From an uncultured bacterium (GTDB lineage: Bacteria > Verrucomicrobiota > Kiritimatiellia > CAIVKH01), in the NCBI GenBank assembly GCA_903906425.1, contig CAIVKH010000160.1, positions 51,510 to 115,509 of the forward strand: a stretch of 64,000 bases of DNA, given 5' to 3'. Positions 3,491 through 61,559 of this stretch are shown in pieces; position 1 is the first letter of the stretch; the number at the start of each line of letters is the position of its first letter. The translations under genes and the position numbers were made by a program. The notes beneath the pieces are model-generated. The model had not been told where the DNA came from. It worked only from the letters and a program-made list of their open reading frames with translations, and ran no database searches.

Positions 3491-3537
3491 TTCCAATGAT
3501 TGGAAAAACCGGGCGCGGAATTTTCAAATCATTGGAA
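3491..3537. repeat. 32-bp-period palindrome pair, locus 1
   Basis: Copies at 3491-3505 (TTCCAATGATTGGAA) and 3523-3537 (TTCAAATCATTGGAA, one mismatch in the left arm), start-to-start 32 bp. The pair sits in the gap between the isomerase gene ending at 3547 and the large secreted gene starting at 3467. Confidence 0.95.
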
Positions 3538-3546
3538 GTTTCGGAC

Positions 3547-4542
3547 TCAAGTTTCTTCGGCGATGCCAAGTTCCTTGAACGTCTTGCGCAGCCACGCGAG
3601 CGATTGCTCGATCATCGGGCCGCCCTGGCCCTCGCATTCCATGCTCAGGTTGCCGGTGTAGCCGCTGTCGCGGAGGATCGTCAGACACTTCTTGATGTTG
3701 TCCGCGTTGACGCCATCGCCGAGCGCGCACTGGCTCACCGCGATGCCCGTTGCGCCGCCGCGCAGCACTTTCGCGAGCGATTCGGAAACGTCCTTCACGT
3801 GGATATGATTCACTTTCTTGATGAACCGTTTCAGAAATTCGACCGGGTCCTGTCCGGCGATGAACGTGTTGCCGGTGTCGAGATTCATCCGCAGATACGG
3901 GCTGTCGCAGAACGCGAGCATCCGCTCCATCATCTCCGGCCGCGTCGTGAAATATCCATGCGGCTCGATGTTGACAGTGATCTTGTGCGCCTCGGCGACC
4001 TCGATGATTTGTTCGTAGCAGAATTTCATCGAGTCCATCGCCTGCGGATCGCTCAAGCCTTCCGGCGCGTGCAAGCCGTCGGTCGTGTCAACGCGCGGAC
4101 AGCCGATGAGCTTCGCCCACGCGATGGATTTCTGCACGTAGGGCACGCCGCGAATCGCGCCGTCCTTGCCGGACAGCGGATACGCCGCGTCCACCTGCGA
4201 GAACTGCACGCCGTATTTGTCCATCTTCCGCCGCCGCAGCGCGGGGTCCTCGTAGAGCGCGACGTGCGGCTGGTAACCGAGGCCGTGAATCCAGCTCACG
4301 CCGTCGATGAGGCCGCACTCGATGTAGTGGACGTTGTTTCTCTGCGCCCACTTCAGGCAGTCCTCGAAACTTTTGTAGCTCGAATTGAACGCATCCGTAT
4401 GGAACCCGATCTTCATTTTGCCTGTCTCCTTCTTCTCAGTTGTTTTCGTTTCATCCGCCGCCCGCGCCAGCGCGCCCGCGGCAATCGCGCCGCCCGCGAC
4501 TGCGCCGGCCGCCAGGAATTCCCGTCTCGTCACTTCTGTCAT
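3547..4542 (-). CDS. Tat-exported sugar phosphate isomerase/epimerase family protein
   Basis: 331 residues. Start ATG at 4542 is preceded by a good ribosome site (AAGGAG). The N-terminus carries a twin-arginine motif (TRREFLAAG, residues 5-13) and an Ala-rich hydrophobic segment, so export by Tat is expected. The body is a xylose-isomerase-like (AP endonuclease 2 family) TIM barrel. The metal-ligand pattern Glu193 (NIEPHG), Asp222 (NLDTGN), His248 (HIHVKD) and Glu302 (SMECEG) is complete, so the fold is probably active as an isomerase or epimerase on an unknown sugar. A palindrome pair flanks it on each side, suggesting its own transcription unit. The substrate cannot be told from sequence. 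Confidence 0.85.
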   Translation of the reverse strand: MTEVTRREFLAAGAVAGGAIAAGALARAADETKTTEKKETGKMKIGFHTDAFNSSYKSFEDCLKWAQRNNVHYIECGLIDGVSWIHGLGYQPHVALYEDPALRRRKMDKYGVQFSQVDAAYPLSGKDGAIRGVPYVQKSIAWAKLIGCPRVDTTDGLHAPEGLSDPQAMDSMKFCYEQIIEVAEAHKITVNIEPHGYFTTRPEMMERMLAFCDSPYLRMNLDTGNTFIAGQDPVEFLKRFIKKVNHIHVKDVSESLAKVLRGGATGIAVSQCALGDGVNADNIKKCLTILRDSGYTGNLSMECEGQGGPMIEQSLAWLRKTFKELGIAEET

Positions 4543-4564
4543 GTCGTTCTCCTTCTTCTATGAC

Positions 4565-4612
4565 TTCCAATCATTGGAACTTTTCGTCCCCGGTCTTTTC
4601 CAATCATTGGAA
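4565..4612. repeat. 33-bp-period palindrome pair, locus 2
   Basis: Two exact copies at 4565-4579 and 4598-4612, both with central C, 33 bp apart. The second copy overlaps the end of the 4604-5449 gene and supplies its final Phe-Gln-stop (TTC CAA TGA on the minus strand). Confidence 0.96.
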
Positions 4613-5449
4613 ACTCTTGTTCAACTTCCGCCACGCTTCCATTGAGCGCGCCAGATGTTCGCGCGTGTCGCCTCCGATGCCGTAGCACTGGAGACCGACC
4701 GGGCCTTTGAAGCCGAGTTCGTTCAGCGTTTTCAGAAACGTCGCCATGTCGAAGTTGCCGGCGTCGAGCGGCTGGATGTAATGCGCCCAGCCGGGCTTGT
4801 CATCGCGTTCGTCCGCGCCGTTGATCGAGACGGCGCGCAGACGCGGCATCGCCTTTTGCAGAAGCGACCGGCAATCGCGCGATGAATCCACGCGCAGCCA
4901 GTGGCATAGATTAAACATCACGCCGACATTCGGCCGGTCTACTTTTTCGGCGACGCGGCACGCGGCCTCGATGCGCTCGATCCAGTCGCCGGTGTGCGGA
5001 TAAAGCAGCAACTCCGAGCCGGAATCTTTCGCGAGATCGGACATCTCGCGAACAATCGCGACAGCGCGCTCATCCAGATTCGTCTCCGAAGGCTTTGCGC
5101 CTTGCATGATCAGCAGGAACTGGACGTTGCGGCCCTTCACCAGCGCGAGCGTGTCCTTGAATTGCTTCGCGTCGTACGGCGTTTTGTTCGTCGCGAGATT
5201 CACCGTCATCGTGATCTGGAAGAGTTTGAGCCCAACGGCGTCGAGCGACGCGATGCGTTCGGCGACTTTCGGGAGCCAGATGTGGCCGACACCATCGTAG
5301 CCGAGTTCCTTGAGCATCGCCGCCTGCTCCGTGAAGTTCCGTTTTTTTGCATCGTGCCAGTCAATGCAGAACGGAAAGAACGGCTGGGCCGCGCGGGCCG
5401 CGAAACTGGACGCGAGCAGCGCGCCGATGGTGATGGTTTTCCAATTCAT
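4604..5449 (-). CDS. Secreted sugar phosphate isomerase/epimerase-like TIM barrel
   Basis: 281 residues with a Sec-type signal peptide (residues 1-20, ending AARA). The body has the pattern of xylose-isomerase-like TIM barrels: MFNLCHW around residue 190, SINGADE, and GLQCYGIGG near the end. Catalytic acidic positions are less clear than in the neighbour at 3547-4542, so activity is uncertain. Its start overlaps the stop of the upstream oxidoreductase by four bases (ATGA), which indicates translational coupling. The last codons and stop (FQ-stop) come from a palindrome copy at 4598-4612. Confidence 0.82.
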   Translation of the reverse strand: MNWKTITIGALLASSFAARAAQPFFPFCIDWHDAKKRNFTEQAAMLKELGYDGVGHIWLPKVAERIASLDAVGLKLFQITMTVNLATNKTPYDAKQFKDTLALVKGRNVQFLLIMQGAKPSETNLDERAVAIVREMSDLAKDSGSELLLYPHTGDWIERIEAACRVAEKVDRPNVGVMFNLCHWLRVDSSRDCRSLLQKAMPRLRAVSINGADERDDKPGWAHYIQPLDAGNFDMATFLKTLNELGFKGPVGLQCYGIGGDTREHLARSMEAWRKLNKSFQ

Positions 5450-6675
5450 GCCTTCAACCCTGTCAGATTAACTTCCAGCCGTTTGTTCTCTTTGATCAGT
5501 TCGTCCATCGTCAGGTAGCGCCGACGCGCCGCGGCTTCGCGGCCGAGAATCGCGGTGAGGTGCCCGTCCACCGCGCGCTGCACGACCGCGTTTTCGAAAT
5601 GGCCCTCGGTGATGTTGCGATAGAACGTCGCGATGTTTCGCTCGACGCCTTCGACGAAAACGTCGCCGACTTTGCCGACATAATTCTTCTCGCCGCCCTT
5701 CAGATATACCTTGCCGCCGTATTGCACGTGCGCAGTCGCGGTCATGCCGAAGATTTTTCCGGAAAGCGTCGTGACGTCCCATTCGTTGTCGAGTGACTGT
5801 GTGACGTGCGTCCACGTCGCGCCGCCTTCGAGTTCGTAGATCACCGACGCGGTGTCGGTGCGGTCGCCGTTGACCTTCGCTCGAACCGTACGCGAGTAGC
5901 CGCAGGCGCTGACGGGGCGCTTGCCGAGCAAATAGACGAGTCCGTCAATGAGGTGGATGTCGTACGAGACGATCGTGTCTCCGCTGAGCCCCGTGTCGGA
6001 AAGCCAGATTTGGTTCTGCAAACGGCTCTCGATTGTCTTGCCCAGCGCCGGATCCGGCCACGCGTGCCATGCGAAACCGAGCGACATGATATGCGAGAAC
6101 GCGCCCATCCCGCCCTCGCGGATACGCTTCCCGATTTCGATAATCGCGGGATCGGTCGGCAGTTGATAATCCACAAGCATCACGAGTTTTTTCTGCGTCG
6201 CGAGCTTGCCTGCCTCGCCGACCATCATCGTACCGGGCACGTCCACCGCGACGGGCTTGGCCATGTACACATGCAGCCCGGCCTCGATCGCAGCCTTCGC
6301 CTGCTCGGGATAAAAATACGGAACGTCCTCAATCGCCACCGCCTCGACGCCGCTGGCGATCAGTTTCTTGTAGCCCGACAGCCCGCTGAAGCGCCGCGCC
6401 TTGTCCACGCCCATCGCCTCGCCCGATTTGTCGGCGACGTTCTCAAAGTAATCCGCCATTGCGTGAATCGTGTAGCCACCATGCTTTTTGAAGAAACCTG
6501 AAATCCAATTTCCGCGACTTCCTCCGCCAATGATCCCGATCTTGATCTTGCGTGCGTACTCCGGCGGTTTGACCGCCGGAGTGTTCGTTTCCGCCGCATT
6601 CGCACCAATCGCCGCCAGCGGCAGCGCCGCCATCGTCCCACCGATGAAGTTGCGTCGTGTCATTTCGGTTTTCAC
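5446..6675 (-). CDS. Tat-exported Gfo/Idh/MocA family oxidoreductase
   Basis: 409 residues. An AGGAGA motif at 6681-6686 sits the right distance from a GTG at 6675 but too far from the ATG at 6663, so the GTG start is preferred. A Tat motif (MTRRNFIGG) is followed by a nucleotide-binding loop GIIGGGSRGNW near residue 50 and the family motif MAKPVAVD, where Lys-Pro belongs to the active site. These NAD(P)-dependent enzymes oxidise or reduce sugars and related polyols. It lies in a tight run with a nitroreductase-like gene upstream and a TIM-barrel gene downstream. The spacer between the Tat segment and the Rossmann domain (about residues 30-42, TPAVKPPEYA) is encoded by a perfect 11-bp inverted repeat at 6558-6582, an apparent insertion. 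Confidence 0.88.
   Translation of the reverse strand: MKTEMTRRNFIGGTMAALPLAAIGANAAETNTPAVKPPEYARKIKIGIIGGGSRGNWISGFFKKHGGYTIHAMADYFENVADKSGEAMGVDKARRFSGLSGYKKLIASGVEAVAIEDVPYFYPEQAKAAIEAGLHVYMAKPVAVDVPGTMMVGEAGKLATQKKLVMLVDYQLPTDPAIIEIGKRIREGGMGAFSHIMSLGFAWHAWPDPALGKTIESRLQNQIWLSDTGLSGDTIVSYDIHLIDGLVYLLGKRPVSACGYSRTVRAKVNGDRTDTASVIYELEGGATWTHVTQSLDNEWDVTTLSGKIFGMTATAHVQYGGKVYLKGGEKNYVGKVGDVFVEGVERNIATFYRNITEGHFENAVVQRAVDGHLTAILGREAAARRRYLTMDELIKENKRLEVNLTGLKA
6558..6582. repeat. Perfect 11-bp inverted repeat inside CDS
   Basis: ACTCCGGCGGT (6558-6568), a 3-nt loop and ACCGCCGGAGT (6572-6582). It is read in frame as the linker after the Tat signal of the Gfo/Idh/MocA oxidoreductase. Arms this long are unlikely by chance in a coding region. 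Confidence 0.85.
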
Positions 6676-6688
6676 TTAACTCTCCTGT

Positions 6689-7324
6689 TCACTTTTTCGG
6701 CCAGCCGACTGACTGGGCGAGGATGACTTTCGATGTGTCTGGCAGTTTCAGCGCGGCTGCGAGCGCGGGCTTGTCATTTGGCTGGCGCACGACGGTTGCG
6801 AGGCCTTCAGATGCGCAGAAGAGATAGATGTTCTGGCTGATGAATGCCGTATCCGTTGCGGAATAGAATGCAATTTCCTCTGGCGTCGTTTTCAGCATCT
6901 TCGTCGTGTCCGCCACATAAACGAGATTCACCGGCACATTCGGCACGAACTCCTGCTTGCCGGTCAGCTTGCGAAAATCGCCTTTCGCGACGGCCTTGAG
7001 GCAGTGGGCTTTGACGTCGTGAAGATATGCGCCGTCAGCGTTGATCACGTAGATTTCCATTTCGCGCCAGTCCTTGGCCGATGGCGCGGTGCGCTTGCCA
7101 TCCGCGCGCGTGATGCCGTGCGCCGCCCACAACAAATCGGACAGCGTTTGCGGCTCGATCGCTTTCGCCCCGAACTCGCGCGTCGAGGCGCGAGCCTTCA
7201 AAACATCGAGCAGCGGCTTGCCGCCTTCCGTCTTCGGCGGCGGCAACGCGATGTCGGCCAGCTCCTGTGCCGTTGCCACAGCACAGACCATCGCCAGTGC
7301 ACCAATTAGTATTCGGATTTTCAT
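6689..7324 (-). CDS. Exported nitroreductase / SagB-type dehydrogenase-like protein
   Basis: 211 residues from ATG 7324, preceded by AGGAG at a normal distance. A longer upstream frame overlaps the previous gene and is not needed. Residues 1-18 are a signal peptide. The mature part shows nitroreductase-fold features: STREFG-AIEPQTLSDLLWAAHGITR near the N-terminus (FMN phosphate and dimer region) and GLATVVRQPND with LPDTSKVILAQSVGWPKK at the C-terminus. FMN-dependent oxidoreductase activity is plausible, but export is unusual for the family. It lies between an unknown exported protein and the Gfo/Idh/MocA gene with gaps of 20 and 13 bp, so it is in an operon. Confidence 0.8.
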   Translation of the reverse strand: MKIRILIGALAMVCAVATAQELADIALPPPKTEGGKPLLDVLKARASTREFGAKAIEPQTLSDLLWAAHGITRADGKRTAPSAKDWREMEIYVINADGAYLHDVKAHCLKAVAKGDFRKLTGKQEFVPNVPVNLVYVADTTKMLKTTPEEIAFYSATDTAFISQNIYLFCASEGLATVVRQPNDKPALAAALKLPDTSKVILAQSVGWPKK

Positions 7325-7344
7325 TTTTGGTTTCTCCTGTTGCC

Positions 7345-8253
7345 TCAATCCGCTCCGCCTTTTTCTTTCACGAACGTTTCGAACATCGAGATCGCCTGCG
7401 CATCAGAAATTCCGCGACCGATCACGAGGCGCGAAATTGCCGACACGCTTTCGCCGGATTTGAGGTCGCGGCCGAACAGCGAGAGGTAAAGCGAGCGATG
7501 CCCTTCCTCGCCGAATGGCGTCAGCACGCCGAAGCAATCCTGCGGACGCGACATGATCAGCGCGGTCAAGCCGGTCGCATCGTCGTGGCGCATTCCCATC
7601 GGCGCGGCCAGTTGCGGCATGATGTTCCACTCGACCGGATGCGGCGGGCGTTTCCACCGGCCATCGCCGATGATTTTCACTGCGTCGTCATCGCGCGGAA
7701 ATGCCTGCCACGTGCCCGACGATTTTTCCGCCGCGATGAATTCAGATTTGCCGTTGTGTTGCGCAAAAACACGCGACTGCGAAAAGCCGTTGAAATACGA
7801 AGCAAGGAACGACTCGAACTTCCGCAGATCTTTTCGCGCCGTCACCGTCGTCGTCACGTCGAGCGCGTTCGAAGCCGTCCAGCGATAAATTGCCTTCAGA
7901 TCGAGCGGATGATCCGCATCGGCCCGCCACAAAGCTTCCACCGCGCCATCCGGCAAAAGTTTCACTGTGTTGGTCCAATCCCACGCTGCTGTGCCGAAGC
8001 GCGTTTCCGAATCGAGAAGGCGGTAATGCGAAAAGACCCCCATGCTCCTCGCGAGATTCGTGCCGGTCGCGCAATCAAACACCGCCGACAGCCCCGTTGA
8101 TTTTCCGCCGCCGCGCAAAGTCCCGCGCAACGCGCCCGTGTCGAAATGGAACTCATCGCCCGCCGGACTGAATCGCAAATCTTCAGCGTATGCCGGCATC
8201 GCCGCCGGCAACAGCACCGCCATCGCACCACCGATGAATGTCCGCAGTTTCAT
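7345..8253 (-). CDS. Exported protein of unknown function
   Basis: 302 residues from ATG 8253, chosen because it starts a clear signal peptide (MKLRTFIGGAMAVLL, cleavage after AYA). A longer frame reads upstream into a palindrome repeat and is rejected. The mature protein looks beta-rich with a conserved-looking C-terminus (RLVIGRGISDAQAI). The repeated aromatic and turn pattern suggests a carbohydrate-associated beta-sandwich. I do not recognise the family. It is the first gene of a four-gene run (this gene, nitroreductase-like, Gfo/Idh/MocA, TIM barrel), so a role in sugar conversion in the periplasm is an inference from context. Confidence 0.72.
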   Translation of the reverse strand: MKLRTFIGGAMAVLLPAAMPAYAEDLRFSPAGDEFHFDTGALRGTLRGGGKSTGLSAVFDCATGTNLARSMGVFSHYRLLDSETRFGTAAWDWTNTVKLLPDGAVEALWRADADHPLDLKAIYRWTASNALDVTTTVTARKDLRKFESFLASYFNGFSQSRVFAQHNGKSEFIAAEKSSGTWQAFPRDDDAVKIIGDGRWKRPPHPVEWNIMPQLAAPMGMRHDDATGLTALIMSRPQDCFGVLTPFGEEGHRSLYLSLFGRDLKSGESVSAISRLVIGRGISDAQAISMFETFVKEKGGAD

Positions 8254-8304
8254 TTCGGCCAGCCTGTCATGGATTGCTCGTCCGCGATCACATGTTTGAA
8301 AAAC

Positions 8305-8351
8305 TTCCAATCATTGGAAATTTCCGCGCCGGTCTTTTCCAATGATTGGAA
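8305..8351. repeat. 32-bp-period palindrome pair, locus 3
   Basis: Exact copies at 8305-8319 (central C) and 8337-8351 (central G), 32 bp apart. The pair lies between the HEAT-ThuA gene (ends 8377) and the next gene on the minus strand (starts 8253), separating two transcription units. Confidence 0.96.
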
Positions 8352-8376
8352 ACTCCGGCGCCCTTTCTTTATCTCG

Positions 8377-11724: not shown

Positions 11725-11736
11725 TCCGGTTTTCTC

Positions 11737-13020: not shown

Positions 13021-13061
13021 ATCTTCCTCCGATGCTCGATACCGTGCATTCAACCAAACTT

Positions 13062-13108
13062 TTCCAATGGTTGGAAATTCTCGCGGCGGAAGTTTCCAAT
13101 CATTGGAA
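13062..13108. repeat. 32-bp-period palindrome pair, locus 4
   Basis: Copies at 13062-13076 (TTCCAATGGTTGGAA, one changed base) and 13094-13108 (exact). The second copy overlaps the 3' end of the CCA-adding-enzyme gene and encodes its final Phe-Gln-stop. Confidence 0.95.
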
Positions 13109-14446: not shown

Positions 14447-14521
14447 GGGGACAGATTATGAAATGGAACTGCCAATGACCAAGCACCAATGACCAATGCC
14501 GGCGGATCGCAGACGAATTTG

Positions 14522-14550
14522 TTGACAGTGCTTCGTTGCGTCACGATAAG
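14522..14550 (+). promoter_or_regulatory. Candidate sigma-70-type promoter, possibly leaderless transcript
   Basis: A perfect -35 TTGACA at 14522-14527, a 17-bp spacer and a -10-like GATAAG at 14545-14550. Initiation about 7 bp downstream would begin only about 3 bases before the ATG at 14560, where no ribosome site is visible. Confidence 0.45.
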
Positions 14551-14559
14551 AAGTTTTCG

Positions 14560-15929: not shown

Positions 15930-16000
15930 CGGCGCGCACGGCGCGTTTGCGCCCGCGGGTCGGTTGCGCGGGATGGGTTGCGAGATTAAAGTTGCGCAAT

Positions 16001-16047
16001 TTCCAATGGTTGGAAACAGTCGGGCTGGCTTTTTCCAATCATTGGAA
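16001..16047. repeat. 32-bp-period palindrome pair, locus 5
   Basis: Copies at 16001-16015 (TTCCAATGGTTGGAA, the same variant as at locus 4) and 16033-16047 (exact), in the gap between the PHP phosphoesterase and glycogen phosphorylase genes. Confidence 0.95.
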
Positions 16048-16097
16048 AGTTGCGCTGCGTGGGAAGAGCGGCGCCAATGCGAACGGGAGCTGCGAAC

Positions 16098-18620: not shown

Positions 18621-18646
18621 TCCGTTGATCCGAAATCTCAAATAAT

Positions 18647-19261: not shown

Positions 19262-19274
19262 CCGGCGCGCCAGT

Positions 19275-19387
19275 TTCCAATCATTGGAAAACACCGCCGC
19301 GCGAACTTCCAATGATTGGAAGAATTCCATCGCACAAACCTCCAATCATTGGAGGACTCTGAAATCCAAAGTTTCCAATCATTGGAA
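19275..19387. repeat. Four-copy palindrome array, locus 6
   Basis: Copies at 19275-19289, 19307-19321, 19340-19354 and 19373-19387, with start-to-start steps of 32, 33 and 33 bp. The third copy is CTCCAATCATTGGAG: both end bases changed together so the palindrome is preserved. The array fills the gap between the exonuclease and 3-epimerase genes. Confidence 0.97.
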
Positions 19388-19461
19388 ACTTCGTCCGCGA
19401 TGAATTCCGCGCGACCAAAGAAACTCGCGCGCGCGACGGGATGAGGATAAAAGCCGGCAGC

Positions 19462-22178: not shown

Positions 22179-22225
22179 TTCCAATGATTGGAAAAGAGCG
22201 CGAGACGGATTTCCAATGATTGGAA
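22179..22225. repeat. 32-bp-period palindrome pair, locus 7
   Basis: Exact copies at 22179-22193 and 22211-22225, both with central G. The pair lies in the 86-bp gatA-gatB gap, within what would usually be one operon. Confidence 0.96.
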
Positions 22226-23708: not shown

Positions 23709-23755
23709 TTCCAATCATTGGAAACTGCGGTTGCGCTAACTTCCAATGATTGGAA
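23709..23755. repeat. 32-bp-period palindrome pair, locus 8
   Basis: Exact copies at 23709-23723 (central C) and 23741-23755 (central G) in the convergent gap between gatB (plus) and the phosphatase gene (minus). No other terminator is seen there. Confidence 0.96.
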
Positions 23756-27100: not shown

Positions 27101-30100
27101 CGCGCGATATTTGATCGTCACGGTGCGTTTGACCGCCGATTCGCGGCGCGAGAACCAGCCCGGCTTCTTCATTTCGCCGAGGCGCAGCCAGTAGCCGCCG
27201 TCCTTCGCGATGACTTCCAGATCCTTCGATGGCGACGAGAACGAAGTCAGCACGAAGCGGCCGGGCAATAGCAGATAATCCGCCGCTTCCTTCAACTCGA
27301 AGGAAAGCTGCAGCTCAACGTTCGCATCCGCGGGCGGCGTTCCGTCGGCGTTCGGCCCCGGTAATTCCACGTTCGCGGTCACGCGATTGATGACGAGCTT
27401 CGGCGGCGGTGGCGGAGGAGGAATCGGCTTCGGCGTCGCGACCTGCTGCTGCGGAGGCGGCGCCGACTGCGCCGCTTGTTTCTTCGCAGGCTCGGCGGCG
27501 AATGCCGCGAGTGCGGCCAGTGAAACGAGCGCGCAAACGAACATCACACGAAGATCGGCGCGACCGCTCGTGCCAGACGTGGCGGGCATTTCTTCTTCCG
27601 GAGGAATCACGGGTGGAATCACCGGTGCGACATATCGCGCTTTGCCCATGCGGCGCGCCGCGCGAACGAGGCCCACGGCACCGGCGAGCAGCACCGCGAT
27701 CACGACGAACCATGCTAGCGGGCCGATCACAGCGGCGGTTTGCGCCGCGGCGGCCAGCGCGACGGCGACATAGATTCCGAAAGCCGTGGCGACTTTGCGC
27801 TCCTTGAAGAATGCGAGCGCAAGCAGAAGCAATCCCGCCGCCGGCCAAGCCCACGCGATGGCTTTTCCGATCCACGTCCGCTGTACGGTGACCGCAACCT
27901 TCAGTCCGCCGTCAGCCAGCGTCACCGGCTTGCTCATCGTCCACGAAGACGAAGTTTCCAATGATTGGAAATTCTGCGCGCCGTCATTTCCAATCATTGG
28001 AACTTGCGCAGCCTGTTGCTGGGCAGCCTGCGCCCCCTGTTGCATCGGCATGATGACAGGTGGAGGCATGATGATCGGATTCGAAGCGCAATGGAACGGA
28101 AGGATCGCCACCGCCGCGCCGATGGCGAGAATCGCGCCGGTGCAACTGAGCCACGTCGAAAGCGCCTGCGCTTTTCCGCGAGCGGTGTTGAAGACAATGA
28201 CGGAAATCAGCGCCGCAAGAATTGCAATCAGCGCGATCCAACCGGTGCCGGAGAAGAGGAGGCTCAGCGCGGCGCTGCCGAGTTGTTTCGCGAAGGCGTG
28301 CAGTCCATTTTCGGGTCGCTGCGGCGGAGTGAGGTCGCCGGTCGCCGATGCGATTTCGTATCGGTTCGGCGGCGTGATGGTCCATCGCGCGTAAATCGAA
28401 CGCGCGTCGAGCGCGGGCGAAAGAAGGCTGACGCCCTGCCGCAGGCTGATCTTGCCCGACTGGCTCGCGCTGGCGACATCCACGCGCGTCGGCTGGTTCG
28501 GATCGAGACGGCGCGGGAGCGGAACGAGAATCTTGCCCGCGCCGCGTTCGAGTGCCTGCGCCTTCTGCCCGTCAACCTTCACCGACCAGAGCCGCGCGCC
28601 CTGCGGCAGCGTGACGCCGAGATATTGCCGCGATGCGTTCTTCACCTGGCACGAAAGCTCGGTGACCGCCTCGCCTTCCTCGCTCAGCCGCGTGTTCAGC
28701 AGAACGAGATCGGCGACGTGATCGAGCAGGTCCTTCGCGGTGTAGCGGCGGAACGCGACGCTCGCGGCGTGCGAACCGTTCGCATACTTGTATGCGCGCA
28801 GCACCGGATCTTTGATCATCACTGCGTATTCCGACGGCAGTTCCTCCGCCGCGATCGTGAGCAGGCCCGGCGCGCGGTTCGTCTCCGAAACGAGCGCGAC
28901 GCCCGGCGGCGCGGCCAGCGCGAGGTAGCCGCCCTCGGTCGCGGCGTCGAGCGCGCGAAGGCCGCCGGCCTGCAACTCGCCCGCCTCGTACGGAACGGCC
29001 ACGTCGTAGGTGACCAGCAGCGTGTAATCGCCGACGACTTTCTCTTGCAGCGACACGACGCACGTTCCGCTTTCGTTCCGCCAGCTCCGCACATCGCGGC
29101 CAGTCACCTCGACGTTGCGCCACGCCGTCGGAATCGCGAGCTTCAGCGTCCGCACCGGCGCGCCGTTGATCAGGTAGGTGACGAGGCTGCTGCCATACAC
29201 CGCGCTCTCGCCGAACGTCGCGAGGTCGAAAATCTCCGCGTTGATCGACGCCTGCTCGCGCACGATCCCCACATCGAGCTTCCAGTCCGGCGCCTTGAAT
29301 CGCGCCGCATATTGCGCGCCCGGCACCTTCACCGGCAGCGATCCGGTCGGCACCTCGCGGAGGCCTTCGTCCTTCGCTGCCCGCAGCGTCACACCGAGTT
29401 CGCCACGCAGCGCGAGATAGCCGCGCTCCGACCGCGCGCCCGCCACGGAAAACTTCGGTGCGATGAACGCCGTCGCGTTCGCGGGCAGCGTCTTTTCGAG
29501 ACGTACGTTCACGAGCTGGCGGCCCAGCGATGCTGTGCGGAAATAGACGCGGATTTTGCGGACGCCGTTTTCATCCTTCACATCGTTGTCCGCCACGTTC
29601 TGCCCCTCGACGCCCGTGACGTTCCACCCCGGTTCGGTCTCGATCACGAGTTCGCGTGCCGGCGCGTCGCGCACATCGACATCCACCGCGGCCTCCAGCG
29701 AAACATCGTTGTCGGCGATCGCGAGCGTGATCCGCTCCTCGGATTGAAGGCTCGTGACCACGTCCTCCGCCCCGACGCTCAACTGCCACGGCAGGTTCGC
29801 AAACTGGTAGGCGTAGCTCTCGCGCTGCGGCGCGGCCAGGCGAGTTCCGCCCTGCATCGTCGCGGGAGCGAACGCCGCGCGGTCAATTTGCGTGAGGCCC
29901 GACGCCTTCTTCACGATGAGCCGCATCGCGCCGTCCGCGCCGACGAGCGCGAAGCCGCTCGCGCGAAGCACGTCGCGCGGCGCGAGCGGGGACAGATCGA
30001 TGTTGCACGGCAGCGGCGGCAGCGCGCGCTCGTGCTCGACCTGGAGCTGGTACGTCTTTTCCTGTGGCCGGCTCAGCGTCACCGAAAGCACGCGGCCGTT

Positions 30101-30845: not shown

Positions 30846-30892
30846 TTCCAGTCGTTGGAAATTTGTGGTTCATGGTTTTCCATTCATTGGAA
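30846..30892. repeat. 32-bp-period palindrome pair, locus 10 (divergent copies)
   Basis: Copies at 30846-30860 (TTCCAGTCGTTGGAA) and 30878-30892 (TTCCATTCATTGGAA), both variants. They match copies three and four of locus 11, and the linkers share the core GTTCATG. Confidence 0.9.
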
Positions 30893-30902: not shown

Positions 30903-31262
30903 TCATTTCGCGTCCGCGGGTTGGTTGGATTTCTTTTGCGAGTCGAGGAAGCGCATGAATTCGTCGGGAAGGAAGAAGCTCTGCCCCTCTTTGAGCGAGC
31001 CGATGAAGCCTTCGACATTGGGCGATGCGCCAGGGCTGCCGATGTAGAAAATGCGGCCGTCGTCGCTGTCTTTGAATTCAGCGAAACATGGGCAGAGTTT
31101 CAACATCGTCGCGTGGCGCGAAGGCATCGCCAGAACCTGCGCGTCGAATTCGAAAATCTCAGTGCGCGTCGGTTTGGCTGTCGGCGACTTGCAGGCGGCG
31201 ATGCAAGCGAAGGCGAGAATCGCGCAGATCAATTTTCCAATCATTGGAAATCTTGGGTTCAT
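30903..31262 (-). CDS. Small lipoprotein with palindrome-derived N-terminus
   Basis: 119 residues from ATG 31262, which lies between the first two copies of a four-copy palindrome array. Residues 5-10 (FPMIGK) are encoded by the copy at 31235-31249. The signal peptide continues LICAILAFACIAAC with the lipobox cysteine at residue 24. A start at the internal ATG 31244, itself inside the palindrome, would also give a working signal. The mature part (about 95 residues, CPCFAEFKDSDDGRIFYIGSP in its middle) is not recognised. It has palindrome arrays on both sides within the sigma-factor locus. Confidence 0.75.
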   Translation of the reverse strand: MNPRFPMIGKLICAILAFACIAACKSPTAKPTRTEIFEFDAQVLAMPSRHATMLKLCPCFAEFKDSDDGRIFYIGSPGASPNVEGFIGSLKEGQSFFLPDEFMRFLDSQKKSNQPADAK

Positions 31263-31345
31263 GGTTTTCCAATCATTGGAAATATTTCGCCGCTGTCTTT
31301 CCAGTCGTTGGAAGTTTGCTGTTCATGAGTTTCCATTCATTGGAA
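31235..31345. repeat. Four-copy palindrome array, locus 11
   Basis: Copies at 31235-31249, 31267-31281, 31299-31313 and 31331-31345, all steps exactly 32 bp. The first two are exact. The last two (TTCCAGTCGTTGGAA, TTCCATTCATTGGAA) are the same variants as locus 10. The first copy is coding (lipoprotein start). Confidence 0.95.
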
Positions 31346-36537: not shown

Positions 36538-36584
36538 TTCCAATGATTGGAAATTGCGGCCGCGGGTTTTTCCAATGATTGGAA
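36538..36584. repeat. 32-bp-period palindrome pair, locus 12
   Basis: Exact copies at 36538-36552 and 36570-36584, both central G, in the 100-bp gap between the sigma factor and its putative anti-sigma partner. The linker ATTGCGGCCGCGGGTTT is a clear GC-core example. Confidence 0.96.
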
Positions 36585-37369: not shown

Positions 37370-37416
37370 TTCCAATGATTGGAAATTGCGGAAGCGGCTT
37401 TTTCCAATCATTGGAA
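37370..37416. repeat. 32-bp-period palindrome pair, locus 13
   Basis: Exact copies at 37370-37384 (central G) and 37402-37416 (central C), in the 269-bp gap upstream of the sigma gene and downstream of the beta-propeller gene. Confidence 0.96.
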
Positions 37417-40337: not shown

Positions 40338-40384
40338 TTCCAATCATTGGAAGTTTCCGTGGCCGCAATTTCCAATCATTGGAA
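40338..40384. repeat. 32-bp-period palindrome pair, locus 14
   Basis: Exact copies at 40338-40352 and 40370-40384, both central C, in the divergent 253-bp gap upstream of the polysaccharide cluster. Confidence 0.96.
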
Positions 40385-43505: not shown

Positions 43506-43553
43506 TTCCAATGATTGGAAAAGATCGCCCCCGGTCATTTCCAATCATTGGAA
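43506..43553. repeat. 33-bp-period palindrome pair, locus 15
   Basis: Exact copies at 43506-43520 (central G) and 43539-43553 (central C), 33 bp apart, within the polysaccharide cluster between the ATPase and large glycosyltransferase genes. Confidence 0.96.
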
Positions 43554-46877: not shown

Positions 46878-47969
46878 ATGATCACGATCCGCCTCACCGA
46901 ACCCGCCGTCGGCCCGATCCAACTCGGCGAGGTGATTTGCCGGTTTGAAATCCGCGCAAAACCTTCCGCGTCGTGGCGCGCCTACGTGAAATTTCAGAGC
47001 GTCGTTTATCCAAGCCCGATCGCCTCTAGCGATCCACCTGGCATGGACGCCGCGCTCGCGACCGATCTGAAAAAAATCTTCGTCGCGCCGCGGAATGAAT
47101 CCGAAATCACCGTTGAGTTTTCCCTCTTTCCCGAGGCCCCCGGCGATTACGAACTGCACGTTGTCTGGCACGACAACGGATCGAGCGGCATCGAGCGGCT
47201 GCCGTTTTTCGTGACGGCGGGCCGCCCGGTTTCGCAAACGCCGCGCCAGGTTTCGGTGAACAACGATTTGCGCGTGTGGGCGCCCGGGGAGTGGGACGGC
47301 CTCCACGTCAGCCATTACGAAACCCGCGCGTTTGAAGCCGCAAAATCCGTGTTGCGCCCCGGCCAGATCGCCTACGACATCGGCGCAAACCTCGGTGCGT
47401 TCGCGCTGCATTTCCTGCGCTGCGTCGGACCGCAGGGCCGCGTCTGCGCCTTCGAGTTGAATCCCGTTTGCGTTTCGTTTTTGCTCGCGACCATCGAGTC
47501 AGCCGGCCATCGCAACTGCACGGTTTTTCCCGTCGCGCTCGGCGATCGCGACGGCGGACGCATCGCCGCCGCCATCAATTTTGGCAATACCGCCGTTGGC
47601 AGCATCGCGGCCCCGAAGGCATTTGCGCGCACGGTCAGCCACGAAGTCAGCGTCGAATGCGCCTGCCTCGACACGCTCGCGCGGACCTTCGCGCTGCCGA
47701 AACCTGACCTCATCAAAATTGATGTCGAAGGTTCCGAAGCTGCTGTCCTCGCGGGCATGGAAGCGACGCTCGAAAAATTCCGGCCGGTTTTGCTGATCGA
47801 ACTGCACGGCCTGACCGCCGCCATCGCCGCGCTGCAGCGGCTCGACGGCCTCAACTATTCGATTCAGGATTTGGGAACGAATCGGACCGCAGCGAACTCC
47901 GCCGCGTTTATCGCCGGCATGACCGACACGACAATTCAGGTTCTGTGCCGTCCCGAAAACTTCCAATGA
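46878..47969 (+). CDS. FkbM-family methyltransferase with N-terminal beta domain
   Basis: 363 residues. Residues 1-125 are a beta-sandwich-like domain that may bind glycan, as in Wzt tails. Residues of about 150-363 are an SAM-dependent methyltransferase of the FkbM type: AYDIGANLGAFALHF (SAM loop), CAFELNPVC and DLIKIDVEGSEAAVLAGM, the family signature, followed by LLIELHG. It would methylate a sugar hydroxyl, perhaps capping the polymer for Wzt recognition. It is 3 bp after the multi-domain glycosyltransferase. Its last codons and stop (ENFQ-stop) are supplied by the palindrome copy at 47961-47975. Confidence 0.86.
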   Translation: MITIRLTEPAVGPIQLGEVICRFEIRAKPSASWRAYVKFQSVVYPSPIASSDPPGMDAALATDLKKIFVAPRNESEITVEFSLFPEAPGDYELHVVWHDNGSSGIERLPFFVTAGRPVSQTPRQVSVNNDLRVWAPGEWDGLHVSHYETRAFEAAKSVLRPGQIAYDIGANLGAFALHFLRCVGPQGRVCAFELNPVCVSFLLATIESAGHRNCTVFPVALGDRDGGRIAAAINFGNTAVGSIAAPKAFARTVSHEVSVECACLDTLARTFALPKPDLIKIDVEGSEAAVLAGMEATLEKFRPVLLIELHGLTAAIAALQRLDGLNYSIQDLGTNRTAANSAAFIAGMTDTTIQVLCRPENFQ

Positions 47970-48008
47970 TTGGAAAAGACCGTGACCGCACTTTGCCAAT
48001 CATTGGAA
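47961..48008. repeat. 33-bp-period palindrome pair, locus 16
   Basis: Copies at 47961-47975 (exact) and 47994-48008 (TGCCAATCATTGGAA, one mismatch). The first copy encodes the Phe-Gln-stop end of the methyltransferase gene. Confidence 0.95.
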
Positions 48009-49447: not shown

Positions 49448-49494
49448 TTCCAATCATTGGCAAAGTGCGCAGCCGTGTTTTCCAATCATTGGAA
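49448..49494. repeat. 32-bp-period palindrome pair, locus 17
   Basis: Copies at 49448-49462 (TTCCAATCATTGGCA, one changed base) and 49480-49494 (exact), between the DUF1080 and FAD-oxidoreductase genes. Confidence 0.95.
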
Positions 49495-51812: not shown

Positions 51813-51859
51813 TTCCAATGATTGGAAAAGGCGGTCGCGCAAATTTCCAATCATTGGAA
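51813..51859. repeat. 32-bp-period palindrome pair, locus 18
   Basis: Exact copies at 51813-51827 (central G) and 51845-51859 (central C), filling most of the 70-bp gap between the FAD-oxidoreductase and GH95 genes. Confidence 0.96.
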
Positions 51860-55353: not shown

Positions 55354-55400
55354 TGCCAATGATTGGAAGTTGCGGTTCCGGTTTTTTCCAATGATTGGAA
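55354..55400. repeat. 32-bp-period palindrome pair, locus 19
   Basis: Copies at 55354-55368 (TGCCAATGATTGGAA, one mismatch) and 55386-55400 (exact), in the 73-bp gap between the MFS transporter and GH16 genes. Confidence 0.95.
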
Positions 55401-55401: not shown

Positions 55402-56148
55402 CTATTTCTTTTCATAAAACCGCACGTAGTCATAGACGGCCGCGGCGGGCAGTTTCGAGTCGTCCACGGCCTTCGTCTTGCCGAGCGACGACGCGATGGT
55501 CGTAAGCCAGATGTGCTGGTCGCTGTGCGGAAATTTTGTCGCGTCCACGGTCAGCACAACCTTATCATCGAAGAAATATTTCACGGCCTCCGGCGTGAAC
55601 TCGCAGCCGAAAACGTGAAAATCCTTCGACAGATCGGGCGTTTTGACGCCTTTGCCGCCCATGCCCACATGCGGCTTTGGATTCCAGCGGTGCGTGTTCA
55701 CGCCATAGCCGAGCGGATTCACCGAGTCGTTTTCGCACACGTCGAGTTCCTGCGCGGTGGCTTTCGGGTCGGTGCCGCCGGAGCCGTCGTGTGTCTGCAA
55801 CCAGAATGATGTGTGCCAGCCCGCGCCGGGCGGAACTTTGAAACGCGACTCGTAGTAGCCGTATTTGAACGTCTGCTTCGAGATGACGCCCGCGCCGGTG
55901 TAGTGCTTGTCGCCGGCGTCTTCTTTTTTCACGTTGAGCCGCAGCATGCCGTCGGCGACGGAAACATTCTCCGGCTTTTGCGTGCTCCAGTGTTTGCTGT
56001 CGGTTCGAAAATTCCATTTGGCCGCGTCGAGCGCCGCGCCGTCGAATTCGTCGGACCACTTCAGCGTGTAGCCGGCCGGCGGTTCGGCGACGGCGATACC
56101 CGACAGCGCGACGGCAACTGCGATGATCAATGATGACTTTGTTTTCAT
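55402..56148 (-). CDS. Exported GH16-family glycoside hydrolase
   Basis: 248 residues from ATG 56148 (AAGGA upstream, 4-bp overlap with the preceding gene). Signal peptide KSSLIIAVAVALSGIAVA, then a single GH16 jelly roll: WSDEFDGAALDAAKWNFR, YGYYESRFKVPPGAGWHTSFW, the catalytic ELDVCEND (nucleophile and acid/base Glu with middle Asp), then FHVFGCEFTPEAVKYFFDD. It should cleave a beta-glucan or marine galactan. It is closely similar to the N-terminal half of the neighbouring GH16-GH43-like protein, indicating tandem duplication. Confidence 0.92.
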   Translation of the reverse strand: MKTKSSLIIAVAVALSGIAVAEPPAGYTLKWSDEFDGAALDAAKWNFRTDSKHWSTQKPENVSVADGMLRLNVKKEDAGDKHYTGAGVISKQTFKYGYYESRFKVPPGAGWHTSFWLQTHDGSGGTDPKATAQELDVCENDSVNPLGYGVNTHRWNPKPHVGMGGKGVKTPDLSKDFHVFGCEFTPEAVKYFFDDKVVLTVDATKFPHSDQHIWLTTIASSLGKTKAVDDSKLPAAAVYDYVRFYEKK

Positions 56149-57941
56149 GGTTGTCCTTTCAAAGGAATCTGGATGTTGAACGATCCGTCGCGATTGTTGT
56201 GGTCGGCGGCGGCGCAAAAGAGCGCGACGGGTTTTCCATTTTCGAAATAAAGTTGCGGTCGTTCGAGCGCCGCGAGTTTTTGTTTGCGGCCATCGGCCCA
56301 TGTAATTTCGGGCGTCGTGACGAGCACGTGCGGCGATTGTTTCCAGTCAATGCCGTCGGCGGATTCGAAGAGCGCCAGCGAATAACCTCTGCCGGTAAAA
56401 TTGCCGCTGTTGTCCTTCACGATTGCGCGATAGCGGTCCGCGTCGAACCAGATGAACGGGTCCTCGGCAGCGAACGCGACGCCTGTCTTGCCGAAGATCA
56501 AATCGGGCTTTTTGACGAACGGCCCAGTCGGGCTGTCGCTCATCGCGACCATGTGCGAAACGGGGCCGCCGAACGGGCCTTTCGTTTTTTTCGCCACGGC
56601 CTTGTACACCATCAGGAATCCGCCGTCGGGCCGCTGGCAGACCGACGGGTTCGAAACCATCAGCGCGTCCCACGCATTTGTGTCGGCGCTGGCATCGAGC
56701 ACCGGTTTGTCGAATCGCTGCCATGGCCCGTTCGGCGAATCGGCGACGGCCACGCCAATGCGTTGGTTGTTTCGATGAATCCAGTTCAGCGGGTGCTGCA
56801 CGATCCCATCGCCGGTATTGCCCATATAATAAAGGTAATATTTTCCGTTCGCGCGGATGACCGTCGGGTTGTGCGTGCAAAGCCCGTCCCAGAATTCCTT
56901 GCCGCGCGCGGGCAGCACGACATCAACATGCTTGAACGGTCCGAACGGAGTGTCGGCAACCGCGTGCGCGATTTCCGAATGCGTGACCCACGCCACATGG
57001 CCGAGCGCACGCGGCCAGCGCGAATAAAACAAGTGACACTTTCCGTCCTCGCTTTGAATCGCGGAGCCGCACCAGATGTTGAAATTCGTGTCGGAAAATT
57101 TTGCGGTCAACGGAACCGGCTGGATCATCGCGTTGAAATCCGGCCCGGTCGGTTTCGGCGGAGGAATTTCGTAGGGCGCCAGCGGCTCGAAGAATCGGAC
57201 GTAATCGTATTCCGCCGCCGCCGGCAATTTTTCGTCGTCCACGTTTTTCGTCCCGCCAAGACTTGCCGCCAACGACGTAAGCCAGATGCTGTGGTCGTTG
57301 TGCTTCATCATGTCCACGGGGAACGACGCGACTTCCTTGCCCTCGAAATAATATGTGACTTTTGCCGGCGTGAATTCGCAGCCCCACGTGTGAAAATCCG
57401 CCGAGAGGTCGGGCGTCTCGACGATTTTGAAACCGACGGAGGTGTGCTTCGGATGATAGCGGTGCGTGTTGACGGAGTAGCGATGCACGTTGATCGAATC
57501 GTTCTCGCAGATGTCTATTTCCTGCTCCGCGCGCTGCGTGTTCATCAGCCAGAACGACGTGTGCCAGCCGCGGCCCGGCGGGCAGCGGAACCGCGCCTCG
57601 TAATAACCGTAGCGGAATTGCGGTTTCGAAATCAATCCGCCCGCCGTGTAGTTCATTTTCTGCGCGTCTTCTTTTTTCAGCGCGATGCGCATGACGCCGC
57701 CGGAGACGGAAATATTTTCTTTTTGCTGCGTGCTCCACCACGCGGGACCGGTCCGGAAATTCCATTTCGCTTCGTCAACGCGGTCACCGTCGAATTCGTC
57801 GTGCCACGCGAGCCGGAAAGTTTTCGCCGCCTCCGCGGGCAGATTCGGCCGCGGCTCCTCCGCACGGCAGACCAGCGCCAGCGCCGTGAAGGCGACGAGC
57901 GCGGCGCGATGGGTTCCAATGATTGGAAACTTCGTCTTCAT
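56145..57941 (-). CDS. GH16 hydrolase fused to a GH43-like beta-propeller domain
   Basis: 598 residues from ATG 57941, which lies between two palindrome copies. Residues 5-9 (FPIIG) of the signal peptide are read from the copy at 57914-57928, and the hydrophobic core follows (ALVAFTALALVC). Residues of about 30-255 are GH16 (WHDEFDGDRVDEAKWNFR; catalytic EIDICEND). Residues of about 270-598 look like a five-bladed propeller of the GH43/GH62/GH117 kind (CGSAIQSEDGKCHLFYSRW, DGLCTHNPTVIRANGKYYLYY, AEDPFIWFDADRYRAIV). The fusion suggests endo cleavage plus processing of a side chain or oligosaccharide. It is coupled to the smaller GH16 gene. Confidence 0.88.
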   Translation of the reverse strand: MKTKFPIIGTHRAALVAFTALALVCRAEEPRPNLPAEAAKTFRLAWHDEFDGDRVDEAKWNFRTGPAWWSTQQKENISVSGGVMRIALKKEDAQKMNYTAGGLISKPQFRYGYYEARFRCPPGRGWHTSFWLMNTQRAEQEIDICENDSINVHRYSVNTHRYHPKHTSVGFKIVETPDLSADFHTWGCEFTPAKVTYYFEGKEVASFPVDMMKHNDHSIWLTSLAASLGGTKNVDDEKLPAAAEYDYVRFFEPLAPYEIPPPKPTGPDFNAMIQPVPLTAKFSDTNFNIWCGSAIQSEDGKCHLFYSRWPRALGHVAWVTHSEIAHAVADTPFGPFKHVDVVLPARGKEFWDGLCTHNPTVIRANGKYYLYYMGNTGDGIVQHPLNWIHRNNQRIGVAVADSPNGPWQRFDKPVLDASADTNAWDALMVSNPSVCQRPDGGFLMVYKAVAKKTKGPFGGPVSHMVAMSDSPTGPFVKKPDLIFGKTGVAFAAEDPFIWFDADRYRAIVKDNSGNFTGRGYSLALFESADGIDWKQSPHVLVTTPEITWADGRKQKLAALERPQLYFENGKPVALFCAAADHNNRDGSFNIQIPLKGQP

Positions 57942-57960
57942 ATTTTTCCAATCATTGGAA
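57914..57960. repeat. 32-bp-period palindrome pair, locus 20
   Basis: Exact copies at 57914-57928 (central G) and 57946-57960 (central C). The start codon of the GH16-GH43 gene lies in the linker and the first copy is coding. Confidence 0.96.
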
Positions 57961-58091: not shown

Positions 58092-58126
58092 GAATACGCT
58101 TTTATTCTTCGTTTTCGCGCGGCGCG

Positions 58127-61100: not shown

Positions 61101-61396
61101 TTGAGCTGCCGCAGCGTCGAATTCGTGACGCGCACGAAACAATCCACGAAAAAATCCTTCGCGCCGGAAAGCGCGACGCCATCGAACCGCGCGCCGAGAT
61201 TATTCGTCGGCGCCAGCGCGGCAAACTTCGCCGTGCCGTTCGCGCCGGTTCCCGTCTGAATAGTCACGCCCTTCGCCACGTTCCACGCATACGAAAACGC
61301 ACCCGACTCGAAGCCATCCTGAACGACCGTCTGCGCGCCGGCGGACGCGGCAAACAGAACCGCGAGGCAAAACGGAATGAAGCGCACTTTGTTCAT
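58127..61396 (-). CDS. Giant secreted beta-rich protein of unknown function
   Basis: 1089 residues from ATG 61396, the start of a signal peptide (RFIPFCLAVLFAASAGA). A longer frame passes through a palindrome pair. An N-terminal jelly-roll-like region (about 25-215, DGFESGAFSYAWNVAKG) is followed by what looks like a propeller of repeated units with NGLILAGNHGKGCYSGQGRLL and two similar segments (SHSALWFGQLSDMQKWGAP and DQAALWFGNVDDLWRMGTP), each followed by FGGVWKEDSV or IGGPWKDSAV. The last 60 residues (GQPYTVLASSDLMQPLSSWT to RRFYVISSP) resemble a C-terminal domain I associate with secreted verrucomicrobial proteins. It is the last member of the glycan-degradation cluster; its enzymatic role is unknown. 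Confidence 0.8.
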   Translation of the reverse strand: MNKVRFIPFCLAVLFAASAGAQTVVQDGFESGAFSYAWNVAKGVTIQTGTGANGTAKFAALAPTNNLGARFDGVALSGAKDFFVDCFVRVTNSTLRQLNLHISDSTGATGSGAPTVNLRYQARWEAYQGSSATWRGLTTNGLPGITTGVWYRLRLTGRDWGAASARYDIELSDAGGTNFTSIATNLVWFQNGNPLTNTARYFDFTTDFGADRGYDVDEVNAAVVSGPAVESNAVVNISGTYPNLTVFSTDGECGIGAVVPWADRLWFVTYPPSAPGTSPDKLWTVDTNFTMLPRPESLGGTHANRMIHRESQQMIIGPYFVDTNANVRSVSRTAMPGRLTATARHLTDPTNKVYFASMEEGFYTVDVNTLAVTTLKSDEQTQTSGNGLILAGNHGKGCYSGQGRLLYANNGEPGWTAATDPGFNGPAGLLAENTGANFSNGWSTIERKSFTEITGPGGIYGATNDSDVIWSLGWDKRSVILKLLEAGAWRNFRLPKGSYTHDALHGWYTEWPRIREINPGTLLMHMHGLFYTFPKTFSAANTAGISPLCTYLKMPVDYCWWNGQIAMGRDETATTGGNNFAGQSHSALWFGQLSDMQKWGAPAGFGGVWKEDSVAANVPSEAFFVSGFQRRVLHLRQGTTNTVNFALDYDAGGTGAWSNLATIAVASNGYSWFVLPPSLIAQWVRLTPDRDATNVTAYFHLANLPTATAPQLFSGIADALATNVARTDGIIRPRSNDASTLQFAVNFLGATGGLSSTAFYEIGGPMKLRVTNNVTADIALRTAYSLSNANFTVDAASVLYVTGTNRYRLPKTLTAYDSSFASGWPRGFREVITERQMLNAHGTFYEVPYADAGGFRRIRPVTTHNKLISDFASWRGMFVIAGVAGSATNDGHIFRSDDDQAALWFGNVDDLWRMGTPCGIGGPWKDSAVTNGAASDPYLMYGYDRKELSLSHSNASPVTFAIEVDFAADNTWSEYARFTVQPGQTLRHIFPDGYSAHWVRVKADATTTATAQLNYNPQPALTSLTAPAAGSQMTFTGTPGQPYTVLASSDLMQPLSSWTVLTNSVFGATEASFADATNATRRFYVISSP

Positions 61397-61512
61397 GAGA
61401 CCCGGCAAACAAGTACCCCGCCGGCGCAAAATAAACCAGACGTGACTGCGCCGCGAAATCCGCAGCCGCCAAATGCCGTGGCTGGCGCGCCGATGGCCCG
61501 CACATCGCAAAC

Positions 61513-61559
61513 TTCCAATCATTGGAACTTTCCGGCCCGCACTTTTCCAATCATTGGAA
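61513..61559. repeat. 32-bp-period palindrome pair, locus 21
   Basis: Exact copies at 61513-61527 and 61545-61559, both central C, upstream of the giant secreted gene. This is the last array before the low-GC islet. Confidence 0.96.

What the first reader, a model, noticed from the sequence alone, without database searches (positions are those of the whole stretch)
3491..61559. A dispersed 15-bp palindrome family, TTCCAAT-S-ATTGGAA, in paired or four-copy arrays at 21 loci
46 copies were found by reading the sequence: 35 exact and 11 with one or two changes. None is solitary; all occur as two (19 loci) or four (2 loci). A 15-bp palindrome at this density cannot be chance. It is not CRISPR (15-bp units, 17-18 bp linkers, only 2 or 4 copies, no cas genes) and matches no repeat class I can name. 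It could be the recognition site of a genome-wide dimeric DNA-binding protein, or a mobile palindromic element comparable in style to REP/BIME or Rickettsia palindromic elements.
Basis: seen in the sequence. Interest (0 to 1): 0.95.

Follow-up and report, generated by a model that had tools for sequence, protein, structure and literature searches.

The report
Evenly spaced paired palindromes genome-wide
In this uncultured bacterium a 15-letter DNA palindrome occurs about 3,900 times, where sampled mostly in pairs three helix turns apart and about every 3,000 letters, which likely makes it the landing site of an unidentified protein predicted to organise the whole chromosome.

Summary
In detail: 46 copies in 21 arrays (19 pairs, 2 fours), against 1.3 expected. 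The whole genome holds 3,931 copies (up to 2 mismatches; reversed-pattern control 0). The generalised motif TTCCAA-N3-TTGGAA reaches 20 or more copies in 69 of 240 genomes of the class (Kiritimatiellia, inferred from record titles) and at most 4 in 98 genomes of other classes of the phylum. In this genome exact pairs lie 31-34 bp apart 1,231 times, 20-22 bp 3 times, 23-29 bp never: helical phasing. In 442 kb, arrays average one per 3.1 kb, far more evenly than random use of intergenic gaps (CV 0.44; lowest random value 0.58). Of gaps of 100 bp or more lying over 2 kb from another array, 44 of 48 are occupied. In SRP54 the pair sits without an alignment gap, pointing to substitution. Half-site letters vary independently, unlike a hairpin. 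Best reading: binding sites of one unidentified dimeric protein with a chromosome-wide role. Main rivals: a DNA-uptake signal or a mobile element (array copying does occur). Even spacing is clear only in this genome; the protein was not found.

The parts
3491..3537 (.). pair of palindromes, 32 bp apart
4565..4612 (.). pair, 33 bp apart
8305..8351 (.). pair, 32 bp apart
13062..13108 (.). pair, 32 bp apart
16001..16047 (.). pair, 32 bp apart
19275..19387 (.). four-copy array, periods 32, 33, 33
22179..22225 (.). pair, 32 bp apart
23709..23755 (.). pair, 32 bp apart, between convergent predicted genes
27956..28002 (.). pair inside the 2,216-aa reading frame 24182-30832 (-), in an indel-prone low-complexity stretch of the protein
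30846..30892 (.). pair of two variant palindromes; the same two recur at 31299-31345
31235..31345 (.). four-copy array, period 32; its second half looks like a diverged copy of the pair at 30846
36538..36584 (.). pair, 32 bp apart
37370..37416 (.). pair, 32 bp apart
40338..40384 (.). pair, 32 bp apart, between divergent predicted genes
43506..43553 (.). pair, 33 bp apart
47961..48008 (.). pair, 33 bp apart
49448..49494 (.). pair, 32 bp apart
51813..51859 (.). pair, 32 bp apart
55354..55400 (.). pair, 32 bp apart
57914..57960 (.). pair, 32 bp apart, overlapping the predicted start of gene 56145-57941 (-)
61513..61559 (.). pair, 32 bp apart

Best explanation
The palindromes are likely the binding sites of one unidentified dimeric DNA-binding protein, set in pairs three helical turns apart about every 3 kb, which is predicted to fold or partition the whole chromosome. 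Shown: the sites, their helical phasing, their spacing in this genome, their near-absence from short gaps, and the independence of their half-sites in a relative. Inferred: that each palindrome is bound as duplex DNA by a dimer, and that two dimers on one face of the helix form a cooperative unit. Inferred and untested: that units every few kb anchor loops or coat the nucleoid. Sites would persist because each stretch of a few kb needs one, so a gap far from any array keeps its array and a gap close to one does not.
For: 3,931 copies genome-wide against control 0. Exact pairs at 31-34 bp: 1,231 in this genome; at 23-29 bp: 0; at 20-22 bp: 3. Over 26 site-rich genomes the sums are 3,767, 40 and 389; 22 of the 40 out-of-phase pairs are in three genomes of family f30. 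In 442 kb, 131 arrays; on contigs over 13 kb mean spacing 3.1 kb, CV 0.44, against means of 0.75-0.78 for random intergenic placement, lowest value 0.58 in three sets of 2,000 trials. Gaps of 100 bp or more: occupied 3 of 18 when 0.5-1 kb from another array, 44 of 48 when beyond 2 kb; rank test p = 5e-7. All gene orientations are used: 19 of 24 convergent, 22 of 43 divergent, 71 of 125 tandem gaps of 60 bp or more, 1 of 114 shorter gaps; heavy use of convergent gaps speaks against promoter regulation. Half-site letters independent in G040: 123 complementary pairs observed, 122.4 expected, n = 188; in G013 15 against 15.4 of 20. SRP54 carries the pair without an alignment gap at the array against 14 homologues. 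Two orthologous arrays of G029 and G132: of five palindromes two are identical, one differs at the centre only, one at the centre and one end, one is decayed in G132.
Against: No binding protein was identified. Four families tested over 52 genomes (Lrp/AsnC, Y1 transposase, ComEC, ParB) occur with and without the motif. Even spacing is clear only in this genome: G013 CV 0.51 against 0.86, p 0.018 with 12 arrays; G040 CV 0.77 against 0.85, p 0.115; in three f30 genomes and one f16 genome 55 of 76 arrays are inside genes, 69 of 76 are single sites, and spacing is not even. In f26 genomes long arrays replace dense pairs. Copy number changes sharply within genera (1 against 110; 3 against 1,177), unusual for core chromosome architecture. 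Intragenic arrays do not stand out as fillers of long gaps (p 0.49, 4 against 88). Long array-free stretches exist at two contig ends (13.5 and 9.0 kb).
Confidence: 0.45

Rival explanations
1. Self-recognition signal for DNA uptake: the pair is what the competence machinery prefers, and the sites accumulate by drive through transformation.
For: Uptake sequences are abundant, relatively even in distribution, under-represented in coding and newly acquired DNA, and drive alone can produce this (passages of PMC7811141). Singles inside genes in f30 and f16 genomes look like this. ComEC is present in 51 of 52 genomes. The longest array-free stretch fetched from this genome is a defence island, the next is low-GC DNA. 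Only 4 stretches of the viral collection hold a pair.
Against: Known uptake sequences are not palindromic tandem units with 2- or 3-turn phasing (recalled). Arrays of 5-7 sites in f26 genomes would add little under drive. ComEC is present in genomes with and without the motif.
Confidence: 0.27
2. A REP/REPIN-like or RPE-like mobile palindromic element, spread by copying, with spacing set by insertion avoidance.
For: Two unrelated G021 loci share 91% identity over 148 bp that coincides with the array. The window pairs at 30846 and 31299 look like diverged copies. Linkers in this genome resemble each other more than column-shuffled ones. The window's intragenic pair lies in an indel stretch.
Against: SRP54 carries the pair with no gap in the array. 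Only one identical pair among 122 linkers. Y1 transposases in 48 of 52 genomes irrespective of motif count. The palindromes are symmetric, whereas REPs are imperfect hairpins with a guide tetranucleotide (recalled). I know of no basis for insertion avoidance over 1 kb in such elements.
Confidence: 0.16
3. RNA or single-stranded hairpin element: terminator, mRNA processing or stabilising hairpin.
For: As single-stranded DNA the palindrome folds at -3.2 kcal/mol and an idealised 23-mer with flanks at -7.9. In tandem gaps 42% of 73 arrays start within 30 bp of the upstream stop codon.
Against: Letters 7 and 9 pair no more often than chance in G040, G013, f30 and f16, and rather less in f30 and f16. 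None of the 6 arrays in window 1-20000 coincides with the 32 terminator-like sites. No Rfam match. Helical phasing is a duplex property. Sites also occur in coding DNA and divergent gaps.
Confidence: 0.04
4. Operators of a large but ordinary regulon.
For: Paired boxes about three turns apart resemble NrdR or Lrp operators (recalled).
Against: Convergent gaps are used most (19 of 24); neighbours in array-poor genomes share no theme by eye; occupancy depends on the distance to the next array.
Confidence: 0.06

Closest known systems
DNA uptake sequences (USS/DUS) of Pasteurellaceae and Neisseriaceae
   Same: Many copies, restricted to certain taxa, relatively even; Karlin read their even spacing as a sign of a role in replication, repair or compaction (passages of PMC1939737; PMC7811141)
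   Different: 15-bp palindrome in helically phased pairs or arrays; 3.1 kb spacing against about 1 kb; mostly intergenic here; no uptake shown
HIP1 palindromes of cyanobacteria
   Same: Iterated palindrome common in one phylum, rare in some members, with sequence variants (abstract and passages of PMC4390886)
   Different: HIP1 is an 8-bp site linked to methyltransferases; here 15 bp, paired and phased; no methyltransferase link tested
SegB sites of archaea
   Same: Palindrome with central S (TCTAGA-S-TCTAGA), sites scattered on the chromosome; the binder compacts DNA and makes loops (passages of PMC12284271)
   Different: 39 ChIP-seq peaks, clustered near segAB, against roughly 2,000 arrays here; no SegB homologue searched
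REP/BIME and REPIN elements
   Same: Dispersed intergenic palindromes in pairs
   Different: Not tied to Y1 transposase presence; symmetric; gapless in SRP54
NrdR and Lrp/AsnC operators (recalled)
   Same: 15-16 bp palindromes repeated at two or three helical turns
   Different: Regulon-sized; PF01037 presence does not track the motif; NrdR not tested

Membership tests
REP/BIME/REPIN | associated Y1 (RAYT) transposase tracks the repeat | tested here: not met
   PF01797 in 48 of 52 genomes, with and without the motif; RAYT subtype not resolved
REP/BIME/REPIN | inserted as a mobile unit | tested here: inconclusive
   copied arrays, gapless SRP54 case, indel case
Rickettsia palindromic element type | in-frame insertion in genes | tested here: inconclusive
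   SRP54: no insertion at the array; window gene and HydF: indel-prone stretches
DNA uptake sequences | preferential uptake of DNA with the site | not testable with these tools
   needs a competence assay
DNA uptake sequences | uptake channel ComEC present | tested here: met
   51 of 52 genomes, equally in site-poor genomes, so it does not discriminate
DNA uptake sequences | relatively even genomic spacing | tested here: met
   in this genome; not met in f30 and f16 genomes
HIP palindromes | cognate DNA methyltransferase | not tested
   none searched
Lrp/AsnC operator arrays | regulator present where sites are and absent elsewhere | tested here: inconclusive
   PF01037 in 26 of 26 site-rich and 22 of 26 site-poor genomes
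ParB/Noc sites | extra ParB-like paralogue in site-rich genomes | tested here: not met
   PF17762 in 49 of 52 genomes, one match in 46 of them; the three without a match are site-rich
CRISPR | clustered longer repeats with unique spacers | tested here: not met
   15-bp units in 131 dispersed arrays, 105 of them with two copies
CRISPR | cas genes | not tested
   not searched

The most novel reading that the evidence does not exclude
A bacterial chromatin ruler: a sequence-coded lattice of about 2,000 twin binding sites, one every 3 kb, on which an unknown protein builds regularly spaced anchors that fold the whole chromosome, with lineages of the class using singles, pairs or long arrays of the same palindrome.
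Probability: 0.35. Interest if true: 0.96.

Novelty: new variant of a known kind. Interest (0 to 1): 0.86.

Why it matters
Few chromosome-wide, sequence-defined spacing systems are known in bacteria. Here the sites can be read from sequence alone, vary in style across a class (singles, pairs, long arrays, or none) and in this genome leave a spacing signature, so whether a bacterium fixes the distance between its chromosome anchors becomes directly testable. If the sites are an uptake signal instead, that would extend uptake sequences to a new class in a new, helically phased form.

Tried and rejected
Protein hunt. Lrp/AsnC, Y1 transposase, ComEC and ParB were searched in 26 site-rich and 26 site-poor genomes of the class; none separates them. 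Genes beside arrays in array-poor genomes showed no common family by eye. I did not identify the binder.

Orthologous gaps between G013 and G040: only 2 gaps could be compared, neither with an array, so no information. Motif turnover: in stretches of 3-20 kb from 20 mostly site-poor genomes no other paired palindrome recurred. Intragenic arrays as fillers of long gaps: not supported. Even spacing in other lineages: weak or absent.

Literature: the exact motif strings are in 0 papers of the held library. Searches on Verrucomicrobiota or Kiritimatiellia repeats showed nothing relevant in the listings seen; a search on regularly spaced palindromes listed, among others, a paper on Ss-LrpB that I did not read. 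The description of the first cultured member is not held; one Kiritimatiellales isolate paper was only searched for terms (PMC6388578).

Rows dropped and limits: the 3-mismatch hit at 9962; in the spacing test only the 9 contigs over 13 kb of 19 fetched were used (114 of 131 arrays), and end stretches were left out, including 13.5 kb at the start of C8 and 9.0 kb at the end of C167 without arrays. Three fetched contigs (C6, C163, C168) hold no G or C and are taken to be masked. Genes were predicted with my own hexamer script, not curated. The genome is a draft.

Full report
Check of the observation. One search confirms the counts of the finding: 46 copies with at most two changes, 35 exact, in 21 arrays, 19 of two and 2 of four, at 32-33 bp period; shuffles give 1.34 on average. 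The window is bases 51510-115509 of contig C160 of a 6.66 Mb draft genome in 383 contigs, 93% complete with 5.4% contamination. The genome holds 3,931 copies with up to two mismatches, and none of the reversed pattern. No tRNA and no Rfam family was found in the window.

Distribution. The core is TTCCAA-N3-TTGGAA; the central three letters differ by lineage (TSA here; mainly GGC and GCC in G040 of family f7). In 240 genomes of the class, 123 have at least one exact single copy and 69 have 20 or more (my count of the rows); the reversed pattern reaches at most 3. Exact pairs at 31-34 bp occur in 70 of 240. In 98 genomes of other classes of the phylum the largest count is 4. Contig lengths tie G013 and G103 to two of these records, so I take the class to be Kiritimatiellia; that is an inference. 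The viral collection holds 4 stretches with a pair and none with the window's own pair form.

Anatomy. Flanks extend the symmetry: in this genome the consensus is about CGGAAATTTCCAATSATTGGAAATTTCCG. Linkers are AT-rich at their ends and CG-rich in the middle. Only 1 pair among 122 17-bp linkers is identical, but high similarities exceed those of column-shuffled linkers. Centre letters favour G then C (51) over C then G (25) among 145 pairs. Spacing is helically phased. In this genome there are 1,231 exact pairs at 31-34 bp, 0 at 23-29 bp and 3 at 20-22 bp. Over 26 site-rich genomes the sums are 3,767, 40 and 389. Of the 40 out-of-phase pairs, 22 lie in three of the four f30 genomes, where sites are mostly single, and 14 in two f26 genomes, which also hold 282 of the 389 two-turn pairs.

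Placement. In 442 kb of this genome 131 arrays were found, 105 with two copies. Gaps of 60 bp or more carry an array in 19 of 24 convergent, 22 of 43 divergent and 71 of 125 tandem cases; shorter gaps in 1 of 114. Nine arrays have their midpoint inside a predicted gene, some close to its end. On the 9 contigs over 13 kb the mean interval is 3.1 kb with CV 0.44. Random choice of the same number of intergenic gaps gives mean CVs of 0.75-0.78, and the lowest value in three sets of 2,000 trials is 0.58. The window alone gives CV 0.44. A gap of 100 bp or more is occupied in 1 of 2 cases when another array lies within 0.5 kb, 3 of 18 at 0.5-1 kb, 15 of 23 at 1-1.5 kb, 10 of 21 at 1.5-2 kb, 21 of 24 at 2-3 kb and 23 of 24 beyond. 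The one interval above 7 kb spans a single 9.2-kb gene. Array-free stretches at contig ends were left out of these numbers; the longest, 13.5 kb, is a defence island with McrBC and DISARM genes.

Limits of the spacing result. G013 agrees (CV 0.51 against 0.86, p 0.018, 12 arrays). G040 is not significant (0.77 against 0.85, p 0.115). In G113, G125, G119 (f30) and G055 (f16) 69 of 76 arrays are single sites and 55 of 76 lie inside genes, though in G119 only 6 of 14; their spacing is not even. The regular lattice is therefore established for this genome only.

Origin of sites. The SRP54 gene carries the pair, and alignment with 14 homologues shows no gap at the array; a one-residue length difference lies a few columns before it. 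The protein reads VPMIGKRAMQEFQSLES where one homologue has VPALGKRALAEAKALDA, so the sites there most likely arose by substitution. In HydF of G040, of four homologues with 86-92% identity two keep both palindrome-coded motifs (PSLG and FQALE) while residues between them vary, one keeps the first in changed form only, one neither; distant ones lack three residues there (nucleotides not seen). The window's own intragenic pair lies in a low-complexity stretch: one of two homologues has a 13-residue gap across it, the other keeps most of its residues next to an 8-residue gap. Arrays are also copied as units: 91% identity over 148 bp coinciding with the array at two unrelated G021 loci, and the window pairs at 30846 and 31299. 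In two orthologous arrays of G029 and G132, of five palindromes two are identical, one differs at the centre only, one at the centre and one end, and one is decayed in G132; linkers are conserved too.

Duplex, not hairpin. In G040 the letters at positions 7 and 9 form complementary pairs 123 times of 188, with 122.4 expected if independent; G013 gives 15 of 20 against 15.4, f30 11 of 65 against 17.2, f16 1 of 15 against 4.9, so never more than chance. None of the 6 arrays in window 1-20000 coincides with a terminator-like site. This, the phasing and the use of convergent gaps point to a duplex-binding dimer, not to an RNA element or promoter operator.

Search for the protein. Lrp/AsnC, Y1 transposase, ComEC and ParB families were searched in 26 site-rich and 26 site-poor genomes; they are present in 48, 48, 51 and 49 of 52 and separate nothing. 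The binder remains unknown, and the function is inferred.

Verdict. The best-supported reading is a genome-wide set of binding sites for one dimeric protein, with chromosome organisation as the most likely role, because in this genome a minimum and a maximum distance between sites are kept whatever the genes nearby. The strongest rival is DNA uptake drive, which also predicts a fairly even distribution (passages of PMC7811141). For known uptake sequences even spacing was once read as a sign of compaction among other roles, and later authors argued that it is not even enough for that (passages of PMC1939737), so caution is due. The exact motif strings occur in no paper of the held library.

Noticed in passing
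L069 (G000 contig C8) 32-17006: Defence island with McrBC (McrC-like and AAA), DISARM DrmB, DrmA and DrmMI and a HTH-M78 peptidase gene; no array in its first 13.5 kb, then a pair inside drmMI near its 3' end.
   Followed up: partly
window 30846-30892 and 31299-31345: Two pairs with the same two variant palindromes and similar linkers about 450 bp apart: apparently a local duplication of a pair.
   Followed up: partly
L196, L197 (G068), L200 (G086): Family f26 carries near-symmetric arrays of 5-7 palindromes with periods of about 22, 30-31 and 22, similar between loci.
   Followed up: partly
G018 contig C1:1409676-1410500 and 1893839-1894171: ComEC match with 3 internal TAG and a Y1 transposase match with 1 TAG; TAG reassignment or gene decay in this 3.1 Mb genome.
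   Followed up: no
family f30 genomes G113, G125, G119: 640-1,177 exact palindromes per genome; in the stretches read nearly all single, 47 of 65 inside genes and in all three frames overall, neither phased nor evenly spaced.
   Followed up: partly
G035: 67 Y1 transposase matches in one genome, far above its relatives.
   Followed up: no
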